The notes below the pieces were generated by a model that did no database searches, was not told the origin of the DNA, and saw only the letters and a list, made by a program, of their open reading frames with translations. This document shows positions 1 to 11,342 of a stretch of DNA of 13,175 nucleotides, one piece after another. Position numbers and translations under genes: made by a program. The DNA lies in contig JABJMI010000757.1 of the NCBI GenBank assembly GCA_018659505.1, forward strand, positions 1 to 13,175, written 5' to 3'. Positions within the stretch are counted from its first letter, which is position 1. Every line of letters starts with the position of its first letter. The stretch comes from Planctomicrobium sp. (GTDB taxonomy: Bacteria > Planctomycetota > Planctomycetia > Planctomycetales > Planctomycetaceae).

Positions 1-1515
1 CGCTTCGAGTCCGACCTCGGGATATTTCTCACCGAATTTCGTCATCTGATGCTCAGCGACAACAGCGGCGTCGAAGTATTTCTGCTGTAAAAAGAGTCCG
101 TATGCGAGTCGCAGGCGAGCAATATTGACTAAAATGGGATTCGTTTCCGGGGTGACCATTTTGAGAGCGATGTCATATAGCCGAGCCATCTCTGCGGATG
201 TGGCAATGAGCGTTTCTTGTTTGGTCTTCGCTTCTTTCTTTTTGTTCGCTTTCAAGAGTTTGTTGATCTCGACATTGATTTCATTCACCTGTTTGAAGAG
301 GACATCAGCGTTGCCGTTCGCAGTTTCAAAATCCTTAGGATCGCCCGGTTCGCGATTCAGAGCGACCATCAGTCGCTGAACCATGGAAGTCGCCGGTGTC
401 TTTAATTCTCCAGGGTAACGACTGATCGTTCGAGCGCGGTTGAGAGCTTGATTCAGATAGTTCGCTTGTTCGGGCATGGGAGTTGTACGGTCGAGTCCAA
501 GATTTTCCTGGGCTAAGCACATTTCCCATTGAATGCCCAATCCAATATCAGTTCGAGAGCGAGCTTTTGCATCCCGCAGCCAGTCTTCTCCTTCGAGAAC
601 AGTCAGTTTGAAGTCATTTCGCTTCTCATGATTCAAGCAAATGAGACGGAAACGCAATGCTCGGTCCTTGAGGTTGTTCATGGTTCCCGACTTGCCGGGG
701 TGACCAAGGATTTCCTCATAAATTCCTAGAGCGATACGGATTTCATCTTGTTCTTCAAAACATTTCCCCTGCCAGACACGGGCATACAATCCGCCGATCA
801 TACTGCGATATTTTGTGTGAATCGCTTCGAATTCTTCAGCACCTGCGGAGAGGACTTCTTTTCGTTTCGAGTTACCTTTGTCGTATGTCTGTGCTTCCCA
901 GTAGGTGCATTGTGCCAAGTCGAGTTCAGCTTCGATATACAATGCTTCCGCCTGAGCACGGGCAGCGATGGTCACTTTTTCTTCAGCAGGAATGAAGCTT
1001 GGAAAAGCTGCGACCGCTTTTTGATGCTGATCAACTGCCTGTTTGAAAATACCCCTTCCTCGCTGAATCATGTCACGCGCATTCTTTCTGAAGAGATCAC
1101 GGTTCCCCTCGTTGGAAGGTTTATCACCATCCCAGATTTCGACTCGTGCTTGTTCGAGTAGAATTCGACCTCGAGCAGTATTTGCTTGCCCAGCGAGTCG
1201 ATGGTTCGGATTCGCTTTCACGAACTGTTCGAAAGAAGCTTGTGAGGCGTCTAGCTGTTTCCGTTGATCGTTCAGGTTTTTCAGTTTCTTGGCATTTTCC
1301 AGTAGAATCTGGGCGCGCTCATAAGAAATGACCTGCTTGACCTCGGCAGGGATATTCGGACGAGCCTCTACCGATTCAAGATATTGCAACGCAGTGTCGT
1401 AATAGCCAAGTTGCCTCAAGCCTTGGATGAATTCCAGGACAGGCTCGTCAGCAACGACGGTAACATTGCTGCCGATGACAATCGCGAAAAAGCAGAATAG
1501 CCGAGGAAATCGCAT
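1..1515 (-). CDS. Secreted TPR-type helical-repeat protein, C-terminus beyond window edge
   Basis: Reading the minus strand from the ATG at 1515 gives 505 uninterrupted codons to the left edge, so this is the N-terminal part of a longer protein. Residues 1-23 form a signal peptide (basic MRFPR, hydrophobic core, cleavage near VVA|DE), placing it in the periplasm or outside. The rest is almost all helical, with TPR-like pieces: QLGYYDTALQYLESV (35-49), YERAQILLENAKKL (65-78), ALGIYEEIL (262-270), ARLRLAYGLFLQQKYFDAAV (466-485). Residues 405-435 are highly charged and probably coiled coil. Such proteins usually act as scaffolds; no catalytic motif is visible. The start is fixed by an in-frame TAA at 1533-1531 with no other ATG between. 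There is no clear Shine-Dalgarno. It is divergent from the PSD1-type gene. The TPR call is by pattern; the partner is unknown. Confidence 0.85.
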   Translation of the reverse strand, partial: MRFPRLFCFFAIVIGSNVTVVADEPVLEFIQGLRQLGYYDTALQYLESVEARPNIPAEVKQVISYERAQILLENAKKLKNLNDQRKQLDASQASFEQFVKANPNHRLAGQANTARGRILLEQARVEIWDGDKPSNEGNRDLFRKNARDMIQRGRGIFKQAVDQHQKAVAAFPSFIPAEEKVTIAARAQAEALYIEAELDLAQCTYWEAQTYDKGNSKRKEVLSAGAEEFEAIHTKYRSMIGGLYARVWQGKCFEEQDEIRIALGIYEEILGHPGKSGTMNNLKDRALRFRLICLNHEKRNDFKLTVLEGEDWLRDAKARSRTDIGLGIQWEMCLAQENLGLDRTTPMPEQANYLNQALNRARTISRYPGELKTPATSMVQRLMVALNREPGDPKDFETANGNADVLFKQVNEINVEINKLLKANKKKEAKTKQETLIATSAEMARLYDIALKMVTPETNPILVNIARLRLAYGLFLQQKYFDAAVVAEHQMTKFGEKYPEVGLEA

Positions 1516-1825
1516 GGAAAATAACCGTTCTTAGACCCGAATCATCTGTGCATCCCACTGAATATGGAGAATTCTCAACAGATTAAACGGGAACGCCGAA
1601 AAACTTCTTCACAAATCCTTTGTATCATGAAAAGATAGTTGTGTCGAAAGTCAGACGCAATCACATGAATTTTGAAAATGTCGTAATCGAATTGATTGAT
1701 TAAATACTGTACACTTCAATTCCCTAAAAATCCAATTCACGAGTGGGTCAAATTCATTTTCCCGACTTGCTCATTCGAATTCGACCGAATACCTCATTCC
1801 TAAATAGTCTCCTGGTCAAGCTAAT
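1516..1825. other. Divergent intergenic region (310 bp)
   Basis: This gap separates the start of the minus-strand TPR gene from the start of the plus-strand PSD1-type gene, so it should hold both promoters. It is AT-rich, especially at 1660-1740. It contains a perfect 10-bp palindrome, TCGAATTCGA, at 1775-1784, inside a looser ATTCG...CGAAT inverted repeat (1773-1790) about 35 bp before the plus-strand ATG; this could be an operator but nothing else supports that. I could not place a convincing -35/-10 pair in either direction and see no small gene. Confidence 0.5.
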
Positions 1826-4800
1826 ATGAACGATCTCCAGAAGCCTTTCATTGCTCTTCGCAGTGCAGTGTGCATCGCTTTACTGCTCAGTTTTTCCTCA
1901 CAAGGTCTGCATGCGGACGACAAAACTGACCGAGAAGTGATTCGGTTCTTTGAACAGAATGTTCGACCGTTATTGGTAGAGCATTGTTATGAATGTCACA
2001 GCGACAAAAAACAGAAAGGCGACTTGAGAGTTGATTCCATCGGAGAATTACTCGCTGGCGGCGAAAGTGGTCCTTCTATTGAGATCAATAAGCCTGATGA
2101 GAGTTTGCTTATCGAAGCTGTTCGCTACGAGTCATACGAAATGCCTCCCGGCGGTAAACTCCCTGAAGAGAAAATTGCCATCCTCGAACAATGGATTAAG
2201 ATGGGCGCCCCCTGGCCGGGACAGGAACAGGTGGCAGCCTCTCGATCAGAGAATGGAAAGATCACTGATGAAGACAGAGAGTTCTGGTCCTTCCAGCCGT
2301 TGAAAGATCCTGAACCGCCCCGTCTCGACAATGATCATTGGTCGCGAAACGAAATAGATCGCTTCGTCCTCAGGAAGCTATCGGATAACCACCTCGCACC
2401 AGCGAAAGAAGCTTCTCAGGAAAAGCTTGTCCGTCGGCTCTACTTCGATTTAATCGGATTGCCGCCGAGTCCAGAGCAGATTGACGAATTCCTCTCCAAT
2501 GAATCATCGACTGCTTACGAGGAGTTAGTCGACACGCTTCTCGCGAGTCCTCGGCATGGCGAACACATGGCTCGCTTCTGGCTTGATCTTGTTCGTTACG
2601 CAGAATCGGATGGGTTTCGCAAAGACGATTATCGCCCAGATGCTTGGCGCTATCGAGACTATGTCATTCAATCGTTCAACGAAGACAAACCTTTTGATCA
2701 ATTCACACGTGAGCAAATTGCCGGCGACGAAATCTCGCCGGATGATCCGGATGCACTCGCTGCCACCGGTTTTCTCCGGCATGGCATCTATGAATACAAT
2801 CAACGGGATGCCGAAACTCAATGGCAAGACATGCTGAACGATATCACCGATACCGTCAGCGATACATTCCTCGGGATGGGGATGGGCTGTGCTCGCTGCC
2901 ACGATCACAAATTTGATCCCATTCTGCAGAAAGACTATTTCCGCTTGCAGGCTTTCTTCGCCAATATCGCCATGCCGTATGACTCTCCGCTAGCGACTCA
3001 TGCTCAAGCAGTTGAATTTGAAAAGCAACAATCAAAGTGGGAAGAAGCAACTCACGATATCATCGCAAAGATTTACGACCTCGAACAACCAAAGCTCGAC
3101 TCGATGGAAAACGAGATGGTCGTCATGTTTCCGGAAGAGATTCAGGAAATGTATAAGAAGCCGGACAGCGAAAAAACTTCTTACGAAAAACAAATCTCAC
3201 ACCTTGTCTATCTACAAGTGGTCGACAAACAGAAAACCGTTGCGACTAAATTCAAAGGTGAAGAGAAGAAAGAATACGAAGCTCTTAAAACAGAGTTGAA
3301 AAAATTCGACCACTTGAAACCTGAACTGCTGCCAACAGGATTAGCAGTCACCGATTACGGAACTCAAGCGCCACCAATATTCATCCCGAGCAAGGAACGT
3401 CTCGGTGAGATCGCTCCCGGATTCTTGACAATCTTCGATCCAAAGGTTGCACATATTGAACCGATGCCCGCTGACGTCGACAGTAGCGGTCGCCGTACAA
3501 CATTGGCGAACTGGCTCACCAAAGAACGTCACCCTCTGACGACACGAGTGATCGTCAATCGCATCTGGAACGAACATTTCGGTGCTGGCATTGTCGACAG
3601 CCCCAGTGATTTCGGTCACCTTGGGGAAGAGCCGACGCATCCTGAACTACTCGATTGGCTGGCAGTTCGCTTTGTCGAAAATGACTGGAGCCTCAAGTGG
3701 TTGCACCGGGAGATCGTTCTCTCAGCGACGTATCGTCAAGCATCATTGAGCGAATCGCCTCAAGCAGAACTACTCGACCCAACAAACCGACTTCTCTGGA
3801 GATCAAACGTAAGACGATTGACTGCTGAAGAAATTCGCGATGCTCAACTTGCAGCCACCGGAAAACTAGACCTCAAAATGGGCGGTCCGGGTAGCACAGC
3901 ATCATCTTCGAAACGACGTTCGGTCTATACTAAATTTATGAGAAATTCTCGTGATGCTTTTCTCGACGCCTTTGATCTGCCCGACCGCATGACAAGTAGC
4001 CCCACTCGAAATGTGACGACATCTCCTTCGCAGTCTTTACTACTCATCAATGGAGAATGGACATTACAACGTGCCGAAGAAATGGCGAAGCACGTACAGG
4101 GTGACGGCTCAGCGAGCCTGGAATCTCAACTTCGTGAGGCAGCTTTACTTGCGTGGGGGCGTCCACCCGCCGAAGACTCTTTGGCTCGCATGGTGCAATA
4201 CCTTGAAAAGACGGAAGAGATTCAGGAAGACGATCCAGACAAGATCACGCCCAAGATTGGCACTCAAGTTCTAGAAGTCAGCGAAGACCCGAAGTCGCCA
4301 CCGATACAAACACTCGATAATAGTGATTTACCGAAGAATCAATTCACCATCCAATCGACCGTTTTCCTGCGTTCGCTCTACCCCGATGCAACCGTCCGAA
4401 CGATTGCCTCGCACTGGGATAGCAGCACCACTCATCCCGGTTGGGGATTGGGTGTCACCAGCACGAAATCAGGTTACAAGCCGCGACACCTCATCATGCA
4501 GTTCGTTGGCAAGGACGCCTCTGGGGCAAGGAAGTACGAAGTCGTTCCATCCACGATTCATCTCGAACTGAATCACCCATACACAGTCACCGTTTCGGTT
4601 GATCTCACGAAGCCAGACGAATCCGGAGTCCTCTTCGTCGTGAAAGATCTCCTGACGAGTGAAGTCCAAACGTCGAACATCGCTCATCAGGTGATCGCCA
4701 GCGAAGAACAGGATTACCCGTTCATGCTCGGTGGAAGAACAAATCAAAAACGTCATCGCTGGGACGGCTGGTTGGATGAAGTTCAACTCCTGAATGTAGC

Positions 4801-5014
4801 ACTCACTAAAGAAGAAATCTTAAATCAAGAGTTTAAACCGTCGAAGGAAAGCATCGTCGGCAACTGGAATTTCGACTCACAAGAATTGCCGATCAGTGAT
4901 ACCATCCACCAAAGAGCTCTCGTCGTTCAAGGAGTCAAACAATCCATCCCTCAAGGTCTCATCGACATCTGCCATATTCTGCTGAATTCGAACGAGTTTA
5001 TTTATATCGACTAA
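1826..5014 (+). CDS. Secreted PSCyt1/DUF1549/DUF1553 (PSD1) protein with inserted LamG-like module
   Basis: This 1062-residue protein has the classic planctomycete multi-domain plan. Residues 1-30 are a signal peptide ending QGLHA|DD. A planctomycete cytochrome C domain follows with heme motif CYECH (54-58) and a possible axial Met in EMPPGGKL (105-112). DUF1549 spans about 173-380 and carries a second CxxCH, CARCHDHKFDP (355-365). Residues 395-500 are charged and helical. DUF1553 starts near 553 (GRRTTLANWLTKERHPLTTR). Residues about 834-1022 resemble a LamG/concanavalin-like sandwich (FTIQSTVFLRS, GGRTNQKRHRWDGWLDEVQL, NWNFDS). The protein ends with the usual DUF1553 tail, ICHILLNSNEFIYID. 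It is presumably a periplasmic or surface heme protein; its reaction is not established. The ATG at 1826 is the first after an in-frame TAG at 1805; the Shine-Dalgarno is weak. Its usual partner, DUF1501, lies 3.3 kb downstream instead of directly after it. Confidence 0.95.
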   Translation: MNDLQKPFIALRSAVCIALLLSFSSQGLHADDKTDREVIRFFEQNVRPLLVEHCYECHSDKKQKGDLRVDSIGELLAGGESGPSIEINKPDESLLIEAVRYESYEMPPGGKLPEEKIAILEQWIKMGAPWPGQEQVAASRSENGKITDEDREFWSFQPLKDPEPPRLDNDHWSRNEIDRFVLRKLSDNHLAPAKEASQEKLVRRLYFDLIGLPPSPEQIDEFLSNESSTAYEELVDTLLASPRHGEHMARFWLDLVRYAESDGFRKDDYRPDAWRYRDYVIQSFNEDKPFDQFTREQIAGDEISPDDPDALAATGFLRHGIYEYNQRDAETQWQDMLNDITDTVSDTFLGMGMGCARCHDHKFDPILQKDYFRLQAFFANIAMPYDSPLATHAQAVEFEKQQSKWEEATHDIIAKIYDLEQPKLDSMENEMVVMFPEEIQEMYKKPDSEKTSYEKQISHLVYLQVVDKQKTVATKFKGEEKKEYEALKTELKKFDHLKPELLPTGLAVTDYGTQAPPIFIPSKERLGEIAPGFLTIFDPKVAHIEPMPADVDSSGRRTTLANWLTKERHPLTTRVIVNRIWNEHFGAGIVDSPSDFGHLGEEPTHPELLDWLAVRFVENDWSLKWLHREIVLSATYRQASLSESPQAELLDPTNRLLWRSNVRRLTAEEIRDAQLAATGKLDLKMGGPGSTASSSKRRSVYTKFMRNSRDAFLDAFDLPDRMTSSPTRNVTTSPSQSLLLINGEWTLQRAEEMAKHVQGDGSASLESQLREAALLAWGRPPAEDSLARMVQYLEKTEEIQEDDPDKITPKIGTQVLEVSEDPKSPPIQTLDNSDLPKNQFTIQSTVFLRSLYPDATVRTIASHWDSSTTHPGWGLGVTSTKSGYKPRHLIMQFVGKDASGARKYEVVPSTIHLELNHPYTVTVSVDLTKPDESGVLFVVKDLLTSEVQTSNIAHQVIASEEQDYPFMLGGRTNQKRHRWDGWLDEVQLLNVALTKEEILNQEFKPSKESIVGNWNFDSQELPISDTIHQRALVVQGVKQSIPQGLIDICHILLNSNEFIYID

Positions 5015-5701: not shown

Positions 5702-8083
5702 CTATTCAGCCCGATTCATTGTGTCCAGATAAAGCTTGACGGAAGCTTCTGTTTCAGAATTATCGAAAGTGTAGCGACTGTAGTGTGGGAAGTGAGTCGC
5801 TCTTGCTTCTTTGGTACTCGCTGGGAGAGTTTCTGCATGGATGACCTCTTTCCCTTCCGACCATGGTTCGATTGTAATTTGCAGCGGACAATCTCTAACG
5901 CGGATTGACTTGGTGATCTCGCTCTCTCCACTGATTGCGTTGCGACTGGTAGTTCGTTCATACCGAATGACTGGCCAGTGGGTCTTCTCTTCGCCAGGCA
6001 TTTGAATCGGTAGTCTTACTTCCATCCATTGCCAATCTGTGGGCATGGTGTCATGCACGCTGAGTCTCTTATCGGGAATGGAATATTCCAACCCCGCCAG
6101 TCCTTCGAGGAAGAGTAGTATTTTACCGGCGTTGAAATTTGAGTATTGATCGCCGAAGAGTTTGCCGCTGCGAGTGTAAGCTTCGGGAGCGACGGGAATA
6201 TTCCAGTCGGAATTGAAGTTGTAGCGAGACAAATGATTCAGAGTCAGTCGCCACGCTGCGTCGCCCAAGCGCTGACGGAACATACCATCGAGTGTGAAGT
6301 AGGCAGTGTCCGGTGTGTAGCCGAAAGAGTGATCGACATCTGTCGCGAACTTTTTCATCGACTGCTTCGACATCGCCAGTGGGAAAATGTCGCCGTAGAA
6401 GCCTTTCTCTTTGTCGAGTGCCCAGGTATTGGTCATTTGCAGCGCGTACTCCCGAGGGAAATACTTGGAGCGCATGTTCCAGAAGCCTGTTGTCATCAGC
6501 ATCTCATCTTTGGGGCCACTAAAGTAATCCTGATGACCGTTTGCCTGCCAACGCTGATCGAACCACATTCGAACTTGATCGTCGGCAAGCGGAACCATTT
6601 GTTCCCAGTGTTGAACATCTTCTTTGTACCCTGTGTACTGAGCCATCCCTATCAGAGACTCCGCCACTTCGAAATGATTCGAGAAGAAGTCCGGAATTTG
6701 TTCACGAAAAACGTCTCGGAAGTAACTCTCATAACAATCTTTTAGGAACTTGACATCACCGGTGTGTTGATAGATTTGCCAAGCACCGAGGACATGTTCA
6801 GAAAGTTCATTTCCATACGCACCAGAGTGCCAGCTCGTTCCCTTGTTATCGGACAGTGAGACGACACCGTTGGGCAATTTGCGATAATGGCCGTTCTCAA
6901 ATAGATGCTTCCAGGTCAAGACGTTTCCATAAGCATACTGAGACTTATTTCCGGTCCACGCTCCCACTTTGATTTGAAAGGTCGAATCGTAACGGTGCAT
7001 CCCCAGAAAGTTATTGACCGCTGTCTGCGTGTGCGGTTCCATTTCCCAGCCTTGTTGCACGTCGATGTAGTACATCAAATACAGCGACCACAGGTAGTAA
7101 TAGATCTCCTCGAACTTAGAATCTGAACAACGGAAGTAAGGAACCTCTTCATTCAACTGACGGTTCATCTCTTGCGTCTTTGCGACCATCATTTCACGAG
7201 GTTCATCAATTACTGCCATCGCGTTCTGCTTTGCTTGATCCGCGTTATCGTGCATCGCCCAGACAAGGACGACTCCGTTTGAATCGCAAGGCACGTCAAA
7301 TTCGTACTGCCACTCAGCACGTTCACCTTGTTGGAACCGATGGTTCGCAGCGAAGTTTCGGGAAGCAGCAAGAATCGTATTCATCCCCTCATACATAATC
7401 GGACCGACTTGTTCGGTACGATCTGTTTCTGGCAGGGATTTTGTTGTTCCTCCTTCGATGATGTGAATGGCGTTATGGTCGGCGTCGTACTCAATCGTGG
7501 CTGTGCTCTTCAAACTGTTTCGTCCGAAGAAACTGTTCCCATTGAAACGTAATGTGACGGGGCGCGATGCGGTGATGATCGAACAGGCGGCATCATTGGC
7601 AGCGATGAACTTCTCTTCGCGTAACTGAACACCATCCACTTCGTATTCACAGATCATCCGATCTGGTCGCCAGAACATCTTCGTCGGTATTGGATGCTGG
7701 TGCGGCTTGTCGTCAATCACGACGCTGCCGTAGAGAACTTTCGTGTCTTTGTAAAACTCCCAACCGGAGAAGTCGTTCCCGAGACCAGTGTTGTTGTGGT
7801 CCTTAGCGCGACTTTCCACCAACCCGACGCCACGGCTGCGAAGATCGTGATGGAACGGATGAGTCAGCCCGAGCGTTTCATGTTCAATCAGATTCCAACT
7901 CGCATGAAACCCACCGACATAGTAAGTGACATTCCCCGCCATGAAGCCATGCTTCTTTCCCTGAACCTCCTGCTGCAACCGCTGGCAGTAATCTGAAAAT
8001 GGAGGCACTTCCGCGAGAGCGGTGTCAGTACAGAATACTGAAACCAACGTGCCTATGATTAGCGAAGAGTAATAGTCAGTCAT
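5702..8083 (-). CDS. Secreted six-hairpin glycosidase-like protein
   Basis: The 793-residue product begins with a signal peptide (about 1-24, ending TALA|EV). Residues about 30-300 look like an N-terminal beta-sandwich (repeated strands such as VTYYVGGFHASWNL and WQYEFDV). Residues about 320-665 are helix-rich with aromatic and acidic loops (YLWSLYLMYYI, GTSWHSGAYGNELSEHVLGA, TTGFWNMRSKYFPREYALQM, GYTPDTAYFTLDGMFRQRL), the appearance of an (alpha/alpha)6 barrel as in glucoamylase-like or GH63/GH78/GH95-type enzymes. A C-terminal sandwich follows (666-793). Acidic residues in these loops (E426, E429, D592) are candidates for catalysis, but I cannot assign a CAZy family, substrate or catalytic pair. 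It probably cleaves a glycan outside the cytoplasm. The ATG at 8083 gives a good signal peptide, though without a clear Shine-Dalgarno. The gene is convergent with the small gene and divergent from DUF1501. Confidence 0.8.
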   Translation of the reverse strand: MTDYYSSLIIGTLVSVFCTDTALAEVPPFSDYCQRLQQEVQGKKHGFMAGNVTYYVGGFHASWNLIEHETLGLTHPFHHDLRSRGVGLVESRAKDHNNTGLGNDFSGWEFYKDTKVLYGSVVIDDKPHQHPIPTKMFWRPDRMICEYEVDGVQLREEKFIAANDAACSIITASRPVTLRFNGNSFFGRNSLKSTATIEYDADHNAIHIIEGGTTKSLPETDRTEQVGPIMYEGMNTILAASRNFAANHRFQQGERAEWQYEFDVPCDSNGVVLVWAMHDNADQAKQNAMAVIDEPREMMVAKTQEMNRQLNEEVPYFRCSDSKFEEIYYYLWSLYLMYYIDVQQGWEMEPHTQTAVNNFLGMHRYDSTFQIKVGAWTGNKSQYAYGNVLTWKHLFENGHYRKLPNGVVSLSDNKGTSWHSGAYGNELSEHVLGAWQIYQHTGDVKFLKDCYESYFRDVFREQIPDFFSNHFEVAESLIGMAQYTGYKEDVQHWEQMVPLADDQVRMWFDQRWQANGHQDYFSGPKDEMLMTTGFWNMRSKYFPREYALQMTNTWALDKEKGFYGDIFPLAMSKQSMKKFATDVDHSFGYTPDTAYFTLDGMFRQRLGDAAWRLTLNHLSRYNFNSDWNIPVAPEAYTRSGKLFGDQYSNFNAGKILLFLEGLAGLEYSIPDKRLSVHDTMPTDWQWMEVRLPIQMPGEEKTHWPVIRYERTTSRNAISGESEITKSIRVRDCPLQITIEPWSEGKEVIHAETLPASTKEARATHFPHYSRYTFDNSETEASVKLYLDTMNRAE

Positions 8084-8319: not shown

Positions 8320-9771
8320 ATGCACCCGACTCAAGAACATTTTCAACAACTGACTCGTCGGCATTTCTTTGGTCAGGCTGGGTTAGGATTGGGAACCGCT
8401 GCGCTCGCTTCTTTGATGTCGAACAAAACTGTTCAGGCTGCGGGGAATGCTGGACTCCCAGAGTTGCCACACTTCGCGCCAAAAGCAAAGCGAGCGATCT
8501 ACCTCTTCGCAGCAGGGGCGCCCAGCCAGATTGATACGTTTGATTACAAACCGAAACTGGATGAACTGTTCGATACAGACTTGCCAGAGTCAATTCGCAA
8601 CGGGCAGCGATTGACGACCATGACCTCGGGGCAAACCCGTTTTCCGATTGCGCCTTCGAAGTTTAAGTTTCAACAATACGGTGAGAACGGAACTTGGCTC
8701 AGTGAACTTGTACCGCATACAGCGAAGATGGTCGACGACATTGCACTCGTCCGCTCAGTGCATACCGAAGCGATCAACCACGACCCTGCGATTACTTACA
8801 TCTGCACCGGCAATCAGCTTCCCGGACGTGCCAGTCTTGGGGCGTGGCTCAGTTATGGTCTGGGATCGATTAACGAAGACCTTCCATCCTTCGTTGTAAT
8901 GACTCCTTCTTGGTCAGGTCGCCAACAGGCACAAGCTCTTTACAACCGCTTATGGGGTTCAGGTTTTCTTCCGAGCCGTTATCAAGGTGTTTCCATGCGA
9001 TCAGGCGGAGACCCGGTTCTCTTCCTGTCGAACCCTCCCGGTGTCAGCATGGAACTCCGCCGCCGCATGTTGAATCGTCTGGAAGAATTTAATCAACGAA
9101 CTTACGAACAAATCGGCGATCCAGAAACTCGAACACGCATCGAACAAGCAGAGATGGCGTTCCGGATGCAGTCCTCAGTTCCCGATTTGATCGATACATC
9201 AGGTGAGACGAAAGCAACTCTGGACATGTATGGAGACGCGGTCAACAAACCGGGTTCATTCGCAGCGAGTTGTTTGTTAGCACGACGTATGGCAGAACGA
9301 AATGTTCGCTTCGTGCAAATCTTCCATCGTGGCTGGGATCAACACGGCAACCTCGCTGGCGATCTCCCCAAACAATGTGGAGACATCGACCAACCGGCGT
9401 GGGCACTCATTCAAGATTTGAAAGAACGCGGCATGCTCGAAGACACACTCGTCGTCTTCGGCGGAGAATTCGGTCGCACAGTCTATTGCCAGGGTAAGTT
9501 GACGAGAGAGAATTACGGTCGTGACCACCATCCTCGCTGCTTCTCAATCTGGATGGCAGGCGGCGGCATCAAAGGGGGCGTTGTCCACGGAGAAACCGAC
9601 GACTTCAGCTACAACATCACCAAGAACCCGGTCCATATTCACGACCTGAACGCTACCATTCTAAACACCCTCGGCATCGACCACCGCCGGCTGAGTTATA
9701 AACACCAGGGACTCGACGTCCGCCTAACTGGAGTTGAGGAACATCACCCGATTAAAGAGATTTTGTTGTGA
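8320..9771 (+). CDS. DUF1501 domain protein (alkaline phosphatase/sulfatase-like fold), Tat-exported
   Basis: The 483-residue protein starts with a twin-arginine signal: LTRRHFFGQ (11-19), a hydrophobic Gly/Ala-rich stretch, then VQA|AG near 41. DUF1501 hallmarks follow: [14 protein letters not shown] (65-78, the family's G-x-PSQ-x-D-x-FD-x-KP block), HTEAINHDP (148-156), [15 protein letters not shown] and [10 protein letters not shown] near the C-terminus. The last two match the metal-site blocks expected in the alkaline phosphatase/sulfatase superfamily, to which DUF1501 is related. Export by Tat would fit a protein that folds with metal in the cytoplasm. The reaction is not established. 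Length is normal for the family and I see no missing block. The gene is usually next to a PSD1-type gene; here a divergent glycosidase-like gene and a small gene lie between, so it needs its own promoter. Confidence 0.93.
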
Positions 9772-9924: not shown

Positions 9925-10788
9925 ATGAAAGTCGCTCTTTGCTTTTTGAACATATTCATAATTGCTCTCCTTGGATCTCATGCCAATTGTTATGCGCAAT
10001 CCACCGATGAGTCCAAAGACAAAATTGAGAACACCAAGTTGATTTCTGATCCAGAAATCGCATCACTCACAAGCGAGTATGATCCAGCAATTGTAGAACT
10101 AGCTGGTGCCTACCTTGAAGATTTACCACGGAGTCAGTTTGAAGCCAACTTAAAAAAACTTCTATCAGGTAAAACGCCGAAAGAAATTGAAAAGCTCGAC
10201 AAAGAAATGCAAAAAGTTCTTTCAATTCTCATGGACGTTCAATTTCGTGATGTCGCTGCAAAATCTCCAACGACAGCAAGATTCATTGACGAAGTCAAAA
10301 AAGAACACTTGGAAGAAATTAATAACTGGATTGAGAAGGTGAACGGCTTACTTGATGCTTCTAAGTACGATTTACTATTCCCTGGTTCGAAACTCAAACA
10401 GCCAGTCAATCTATTTTTCAATGGACTTGGAACTGTTGTGTCTGATCGGGCTGAGATAGCAAAATTTGGCACGAATGGTAATTTCAAATTTGATGATGTC
10501 ATTACATTAGGCGATGGAGAAGACGCATCGATGCTGATACTTGATGGTCAGGAAGATTTCGATTTCTACATGAATGGTAATTTCTCCGCCTTAGGCTGCA
10601 CTTTCTTCTTAATTGGATGGGATCAAGGGAATGGCTACCTTCTTTATAACCTCCGAATCCGGTCAAATTGCGTCTGGCGGCTTGTCTATATCCAGAATTT
10701 TACTGCCATAGAAGCTTCCCGGAAGAACTTGTCGAATTATCGTCCTAAAGGCGAATCGAAAATAAGCATCGAGGTCAAAGACAGCTAG
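9925..10788 (+). CDS. Secreted protein truncated by an in-frame TAG; N-terminal part
   Basis: This reading frame gives 287 residues and ends at TAG 10786-10788, but the same frame stays open for another 118 codons (see 10789-11145), so this is the N-terminal 70 percent of a 405-residue protein. Residues 1-24 are a signal peptide (NCYA|QS). Residues about 45-150 are helical and charged (FEANLKKLLSGKTPKEIEKL, EVKKEHLEEINNWIEKVNGL). From about 155 the pattern changes to beta strands (VNLFFNGLGTVV, DFDFYMNGNF, GWDQGNGYLLYNLRIR, VWRLVYI, KISIEVKDS), resembling a concanavalin-like or DUF1080-like sandwich cut before its last strands. GAGGG (9911-9915) lies nine bases before the ATG. Codon use is A-rich compared with the neighbouring DUF1501 gene. 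I cannot name the function. A protein ending at the TAG would lack the end of its sandwich domain. Confidence 0.75.
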   Translation: MKVALCFLNIFIIALLGSHANCYAQSTDESKDKIENTKLISDPEIASLTSEYDPAIVELAGAYLEDLPRSQFEANLKKLLSGKTPKEIEKLDKEMQKVLSILMDVQFRDVAAKSPTTARFIDEVKKEHLEEINNWIEKVNGLLDASKYDLLFPGSKLKQPVNLFFNGLGTVVSDRAEIAKFGTNGNFKFDDVITLGDGEDASMLILDGQEDFDFYMNGNFSALGCTFFLIGWDQGNGYLLYNLRIRSNCVWRLVYIQNFTAIEASRKNLSNYRPKGESKISIEVKDS

Positions 10789-11145
10789 CTAACATGTAAG
10801 GCTGATAATGAAAGTCTCGCAACAAACCTCCCTCTCGACCTCTACAAACCTGGGGAGGTTTTATTTGGAATTACGGGAAATCAATATGGTCCCAAAAAAA
10901 TCTCGATTAGCGAAATTGCTGTCCTCAGAGGTTCTCAATCAAGTAAGGGAATCCAAAAAAATAGTAAAGAGGCGATGACTCGAGAAAGAAATGCAAGAGC
11001 GAAACTTCAACTTGCGCAATCGGCGATTGAAGAGGGACTCATTGTCTTAGCTAAAAAATTCCTCACTGATATTACGAACGAATACACTGATACTTCCGCT
11101 GCCAAGGAGGGAAGAGAATTACTCCGCACTCTGTCGCCTGAATGA
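10789..11145 (+). pseudogene. In-frame C-terminal continuation of the 9925 gene after an amber codon
   Basis: Directly after the TAG, and in the same frame as 9925-10788, 118 sense codons run to TGA at 11143-11145 without another stop. The translation continues the domain naturally: before the TAG KISIEVKDS, after it LTCKADNESLATNLPLDLY (1-19), PGEVLFGITGN (21-31) and KKISISEIAVLRG (35-47), the closing strands of a concanavalin or DUF1080-type sandwich. Then comes a helical tail with TPR-like spacing: ARAKLQLAQSAIEEGLIVLA, TDTSAAKEGRELLRTLSPE. The segment has no usable start at its beginning; the only internal ATG (10975) would make 56 residues. It is therefore a remnant of one 407-codon gene carrying a single nonsense codon, or the downstream part of a read-through product, or a sequencing error at one base. 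Decay looks recent, since no second lesion is present. Confidence 0.8.
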
Positions 11146-11290: not shown

Positions 11291-11342
11291 GTCCGGTTTT
11301 ACCGGACGCAACTCAACGAATCGTCGACCGGTGGAACCGGTC
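11291..11342. repeat. Two related tandem hairpins (REP-like)
   Basis: Hairpin 1 is GTCCGGT (11291-11297), loop TTT, ACCGGAC (11301-11307). Hairpin 2 is GACCGGT (11326-11332), loop GGA, ACCGGTC (11336-11342). Both are perfect 7-bp stems with 3-nt loops, 18 bases apart. They differ at the second base pair, T-A in one and A-T in the other, so pairing is kept while sequence changes. This looks like a pair of related palindromic units, as in REP-type dispersed repeats, or part of a structured RNA or terminator after the interrupted gene. A third, smaller hairpin, AAGGG-TCGC-CCCTT, follows at 11363-11376. Confidence 0.6.

What the first reader, a model, noticed from the sequence alone, without database searches (positions are those of the whole stretch)
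9925..11145. Single amber codon splits a 407-codon secreted-protein gene
The frame of 9925-10788 continues past its TAG (10786-10788) for 118 more sense codons to TGA at 11143. The downstream translation (closing beta strands, then a TPR-like helical tail) completes the domain left unfinished at the TAG, so this is one gene. With no frameshift and no second stop, the options are a very recent nonsense mutation, a suppressed or read-through amber giving short and long forms, or a one-base sequencing error. The following bases, CTA, put the stop in a TAG-C context, which is often leaky, but that is weak evidence. A start-dependent gene caller would leave 357 bases unannotated.
Basis: partly seen in the sequence, partly recalled or inferred. 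Interest (0 to 1): 0.72.

Follow-up and report, generated by a model that had tools for sequence, protein, structure and literature searches.

The report
Amber-stop allele of planctomycete lectin-fold gene
One marine-planctomycete genome bin carries a single in-frame stop in a gene for a secreted, sugar-binding-like protein that is uninterrupted in a near-identical public sequence, so this is most likely an ordinary broken copy (or a one-base sequence error) and not a new way of reading genes.

Summary
In detail: TAG at 10786-10788 is followed in frame by 118 sense codons to TGA at 11143-11145, and both parts are one gene. A protein search with X at the stop returned a 406-residue protein (P0002) matching over the full length, with a sense codon there and one other difference; its cluster has 5 members on 7 contigs (representative seen). 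The only cut form returned is from one contig of the window's length. 30 of 30 relatives re-aligned cross the break. The stop removes 4 of 16 predicted strands of a concanavalin-type sandwich plus a helical tail. Nothing positive supports read-through: other TAG-ended frames behave as ended, none of 17 tRNA genes found has a CUA anticodon (weak, incomplete bin), and RNA structure is unremarkable. Best reading: a recent private nonsense allele of an accessory gene. A one-base consensus error in this fragmented 75%-complete bin is the main rival and cannot be excluded without reads. Interest is low. The side finding, a helical module recurring near planctomycete C-termini, may be worth more than the stop.

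The parts
9925..10788 (+). Upstream part of the gene, 287 codons to the amber stop: signal-peptide-like start, helical region, first part of a beta-sandwich domain
10039..10041 (+). Internal TTG at which the database prediction for this contig (P0003, 249 aa) starts
10456..10923 (+). Region conserved in relatives (codons 178-333), predicted concanavalin/galectin-type beta sandwich; runs through the amber codon
10786..10788 (+). In-frame amber codon (codon 288), first residue of a predicted beta strand; a sense codon in P0002
10789..11145 (+). Downstream part, 118 sense codons and TGA: last four predicted strands and three helices
10972..11133 (+). TPR-like helical module that recurs, often at the C-terminus, in other planctomycete proteins

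Best explanation
The window carries a nonsense allele of a 406-codon gene for a probably exported protein with a concanavalin/galectin-type beta sandwich and a helical C-terminal module, in a planctomycete of the genus Thalassoglobus. Shown: one gene; a sense codon at the position in a near-identical public sequence; the stop seen in one contig only. Inferred: TAG is read as a normal stop; the 287-residue product lacks 4 of the 16 predicted strands and the tail, so it would probably not fold and the copy is a very young pseudogene. The gene is an accessory, diverged paralogue (25-33% identical to the 30 relatives aligned, no closer match in 5 congeners), so its loss is probably tolerated.
For: P0002 full length with a sense codon (cluster of 5 member sequences on 7 contigs, longest 37,082 bases) against P0003 on 1 contig of 13,175 bases. 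Of 47 non-self match rows 41 cover codon 288 and run to at least residue 331; the other 6 are tail-only. 30 of those 41 were taken out and re-aligned, and 30 of 30 cross it; in the alignment of 26 of them none has a gap at that column. The strand at 288-293 and three more are lost. TAG ends a complete DUF1501 domain (profile 1-390 of 390, residue 431 of 432) elsewhere in this genome (L043), and 7 other TAG-ended open frames run on only 5-43 codons. The congeners' matches are 25-33% identical, while the genome holds a separate single-domain paralogue 59-72% identical to proteins of four congeners (the fifth, G003, gave 28%). The long genes with a matched family in the window have complete domains (DUF1559), which speaks against generally poor sequence.
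Against: No reads, so a real mutation cannot be told from a consensus error. Only the representative of the P0002 cluster (90% identity) was seen. The search considers only proteins of 0.55-1.75 times the query length, so shorter pieces would not show. The intact copies' DNA could not be fetched, so no test of selection was made. RF1 was not found in this bin, which I attribute to incompleteness.
Confidence: 0.65

Rival explanations
1. One-base sequencing or assembly-consensus error; the organism has an intact 406-codon gene.
For: A single changed codon and no other break in the gene; the genome is a fragmented bin (951 contigs, 75% complete); near-identical P0002 is uninterrupted. Gene-fragmenting errors in assemblies are a known problem (PMC12007338, search listing and start of abstract only, about long reads).
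Against: Long genes with matched families in the window have complete domains; P0002 also differs at residue 360, so the window is a distinct allele if that difference is real.
Confidence: 0.28
2. Programmed read-through or amber suppression gives a short and a long secreted form.
For: The downstream frame is intact and coding-like; TAG is followed by C; RF1 was not found in this bin; read-through is reported as frequent in E. coli reporters (PMC11126739, passages).
Against: The stop came up in one contig only; 30 of 30 relatives re-aligned are open across this place; no CUA anticodon among 17 tRNA genes found (weak, since 17 is far from a full set and 150 of 182 candidates were scored); RF1 is present in 5 of 5 congeners; RNA fold z -1.14, 29 of 200 shuffles fold at least as well; TAG terminates a complete domain elsewhere. 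The short form would end inside the sandwich.
Confidence: 0.05
3. Two separate genes meeting at the TAG.
For: One in-frame start codon downstream, ATG at 10975, preceded by AGAGG, which could serve as a ribosome site (reading).
Against: P0002 joins both parts; the conserved domain spans the stop; a start at 10975 would leave out the last strands.
Confidence: 0.02

Closest known systems
Nonsense (premature stop) alleles and young pseudogenes of bacterial accessory genes
   Same: One in-frame stop, intact downstream frame, uninterrupted near-identical sequence elsewhere, no close relative in 5 congeners
   Different: No difference seen; whether the base is real is untested
Concanavalin A-like / galectin-type carbohydrate-binding folds (CBM66, ERGIC-53 and VIP36 lectin domains)
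   Different: About 10% identity; no Pfam family at E <= 0.01 in any of 28 members scanned; sugar binding not shown
Tetratricopeptide-like repeats
   Same: Tail helices 343-369, 373-386, 391-402; TPR_19 E 0.014, below its curated cut-off
   Different: One short helical unit at the end, not an array

Membership tests
Premature-stop allele of an intact gene | Near-identical sequence without the stop | tested here: met
   P0002, (cluster representative only)
Premature-stop allele of an intact gene | The stop lies inside a conserved domain of relatives | tested here: met
   30 of 30 relatives re-aligned cross codon 288; 41 of 47 non-self match rows
Premature-stop allele of an intact gene | The stop is supported by reads | not testable with these tools
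   no reads held
Programmed stop-codon read-through | Stop conserved among related genes | tested here: not met
Programmed stop-codon read-through | Stimulatory RNA structure downstream | tested here: inconclusive
   z -1.14; such a structure is not needed in every case (recalled)
Amber suppression or code change | tRNA with CUA anticodon | tested here: inconclusive
   none in 17 tRNA genes found in a 75% bin
Amber suppression or code change | TAG not used as a terminator | tested here: not met
   a DUF1501 gene (L043) ends with TAG directly after a complete domain
Concanavalin A-like lectin/glucanase fold | Beta-sandwich fold | tested here: met
   predicted model of P0002 only
Concanavalin A-like lectin/glucanase fold | Carbohydrate binding | not testable with these tools
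   no assay

The most novel reading that the evidence does not exclude
The amber is a strain-specific switch: leaky termination at codon 288 yields mostly a short product plus a little full-length protein with its C-terminal module, so that amount or localisation of the secreted lectin-like protein differs between strains.
Probability: 0.03. Interest if true: 0.4.

Novelty: new member of a known kind. Interest (0 to 1): 0.12.

Why it matters
As a stop codon it matters little: it is a caution that one base in a genome bin can cut a gene (here the prediction also lost the signal-peptide-like start). The recurrent helical module seen on the way, often at the very C-terminus of planctomycete proteins, may deserve a study of its own as a possible attachment, partner-binding or sorting part.

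Tried and rejected
Rejected: two genes; reassigned TAG; stem-loop-driven read-through (unremarkable).

Led nowhere: relatives of the upstream part in genome contigs (256 stretches matched a pattern, none encodes a relative); Pfam and NCBIfam on the joined protein P0002 and Pfam on the 28 members of A1, no family; papers: 55 papers hold all terms, one read in passages; 3 papers, listing only; none with all six terms; 1 paper, listing only, not to the point; genus name, listing only; Rfam on the window at gathering scores (none). RF1: one search found only a piece of 195 codons at a contig edge, below the cut-off, which I read as RF2 from its motif (recalled); 5 of 5 congeners have RF1 above the cut-off.

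Script slip: one search read minus-strand loci in the wrong orientation; one search replaces it.

Full report
What is there. The frame 9925-11145 is ATG, 286 further sense codons, TAG (10786-10788), 118 sense codons, TGA. Chance is a poor explanation of the open run: 24, 173 and 111 of 20,000 simulated stretches stay open under three base compositions, and codon usage favours only this frame of the tail.

One gene. A search of about 5.8 billion proteins with the read-through sequence (X at the stop) gave two proteins among 6,738 candidates (only proteins of 0.55-1.75 times the query length are candidates). P0002, 406 aa, matches over the full length; it differs from the window at two residues, 288 (a sense codon there) and 360. 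Its 90% cluster holds 5 member sequences on 7 contigs, of which I saw only the representative. P0003, 249 aa, on 1 contig of 13,175 bases (the window's length), is the cut form; it begins at an internal TTG and so lacks the signal-peptide-like start. Following the rules I do not name the letter at the stop in P0002.

Relatives. In 170 genomes of the family, 39 have a match (the own genome included); of 47 match rows other than the query itself, 41 cover codon 288 and reach at least residue 331, and 6 match the tail only. Thirty of the 41 were taken out and re-aligned: 30 of 30 align across codon 288, up to residues 331-362, at 25-33% identity. In the alignment of 26 of them with P0002 and the read-through form, 0 of 26 have a gap at the column of the stop. 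The genus is Thalassoglobus: contig C5 of the congener G001 (111,910 bases) corresponds to T. neptunius KOR42, NZ_SIHI01000005.1.

An accessory gene. The genome has a second, single-domain paralogue (L009, contig C403), 59-72% identical to proteins of four congeners (28% to that of G003), while the window gene is only about 25-33% identical to all of them. The neighbouring DUF1501 gene has orthologues at 85-92% in four congeners, and an incomplete one at 89% at a contig edge in the fifth. In the stretches fetched around four of these (L072-L075, 8.7-16 kb, two of them near contig ends) neither the window gene nor the 5702-8083 gene is found; the latter has no match in 5 of 5 congeners. This fits a variable region in which a gene can be lost.

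Is the TAG a stop? In 19 stretches of this genome (56,336 bases), 8 of 34 open frames of at least 150 codons (shadow frames included) end with TAG; after the other 7 the frame runs on 5-43 codons. One of them is a DUF1501 gene whose domain is complete (1-390 of 390) at residue 431 of 432. Of 17 tRNA genes found (150 of 182 candidates scored) none has a CUA anticodon; one is tRNA-Sec with TCA. Seventeen is far from a full set, so this is weak. RF1 was not found in this 75%-complete bin but is in 5 of 5 congeners. The RNA around and after the stop folds no better than many shuffles (29 of 200). In E. coli reporters read-through runs TGA > TAG > TAA, and the authors call such events frequent (PMC11126739, passages only). 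So read-through is possible in principle but has no positive support here.

Mutation or error? Undecided. Long genes with matched families in the window have complete domains, and the window allele differs from P0002 also at residue 360, so I lean to a real private allele (0.65) over an error (0.28). This split is a judgement and not a computed number.

Side finding. The last helical module (10972-11133) recurs: 64 of 149 genomes drawn from the phylum, the own genome included, have a match at E <= 1e-4. Of the 40 non-self loci held, 25 matches end within 10 residues of the stop codon, 14 lie 25-471 residues before it and 1 runs off the locus; among the 31 stronger or phylum-wide ones the count is 23, and among the 9 weaker congener ones 2. 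In the 5 of 6 tail-only proteins that I fetched it is also terminal. Many of the inner matches may be ordinary TPR repeats. Its role is unknown; attachment, partner binding or sorting are guesses.

Noticed in passing
10972-11133; L082-L121: A TPR-like helical module of about 55 residues recurs, often at the C-terminus, in otherwise different planctomycete proteins (25 of 40 non-self matches held end within 10 residues of the stop; 64 of 149 phylum genomes have a match).
   Followed up: partly
5702-8083 (-): A 793-aa frame without Pfam or NCBIfam match and with no match in 5 congeners lies inverted between the PSCyt/PSD1 gene (1826-5014) and the DUF1501 gene (8320-9771).
   Followed up: partly
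8320-9771: DUF1501 gene; 63 matches to it in this one genome bin and 53-126 in each of 5 congeners, a large expansion.
   Followed up: no
11291-11307 and 11326-11342: Two adjacent perfect 7-base hairpins with 3-base loops between the gene and the next one, seen by reading the sequence; possible terminator or repeat element.
   Followed up: no
G000:C695:8385-8476 (L057): A tRNA-Sec gene (anticodon TCA), so the organism may use selenocysteine at TGA.
   Followed up: no
1-1530 (-): An open frame of 510 codons running off the window edge, with a signal-like start by reading; no NCBIfam match.
   Followed up: no
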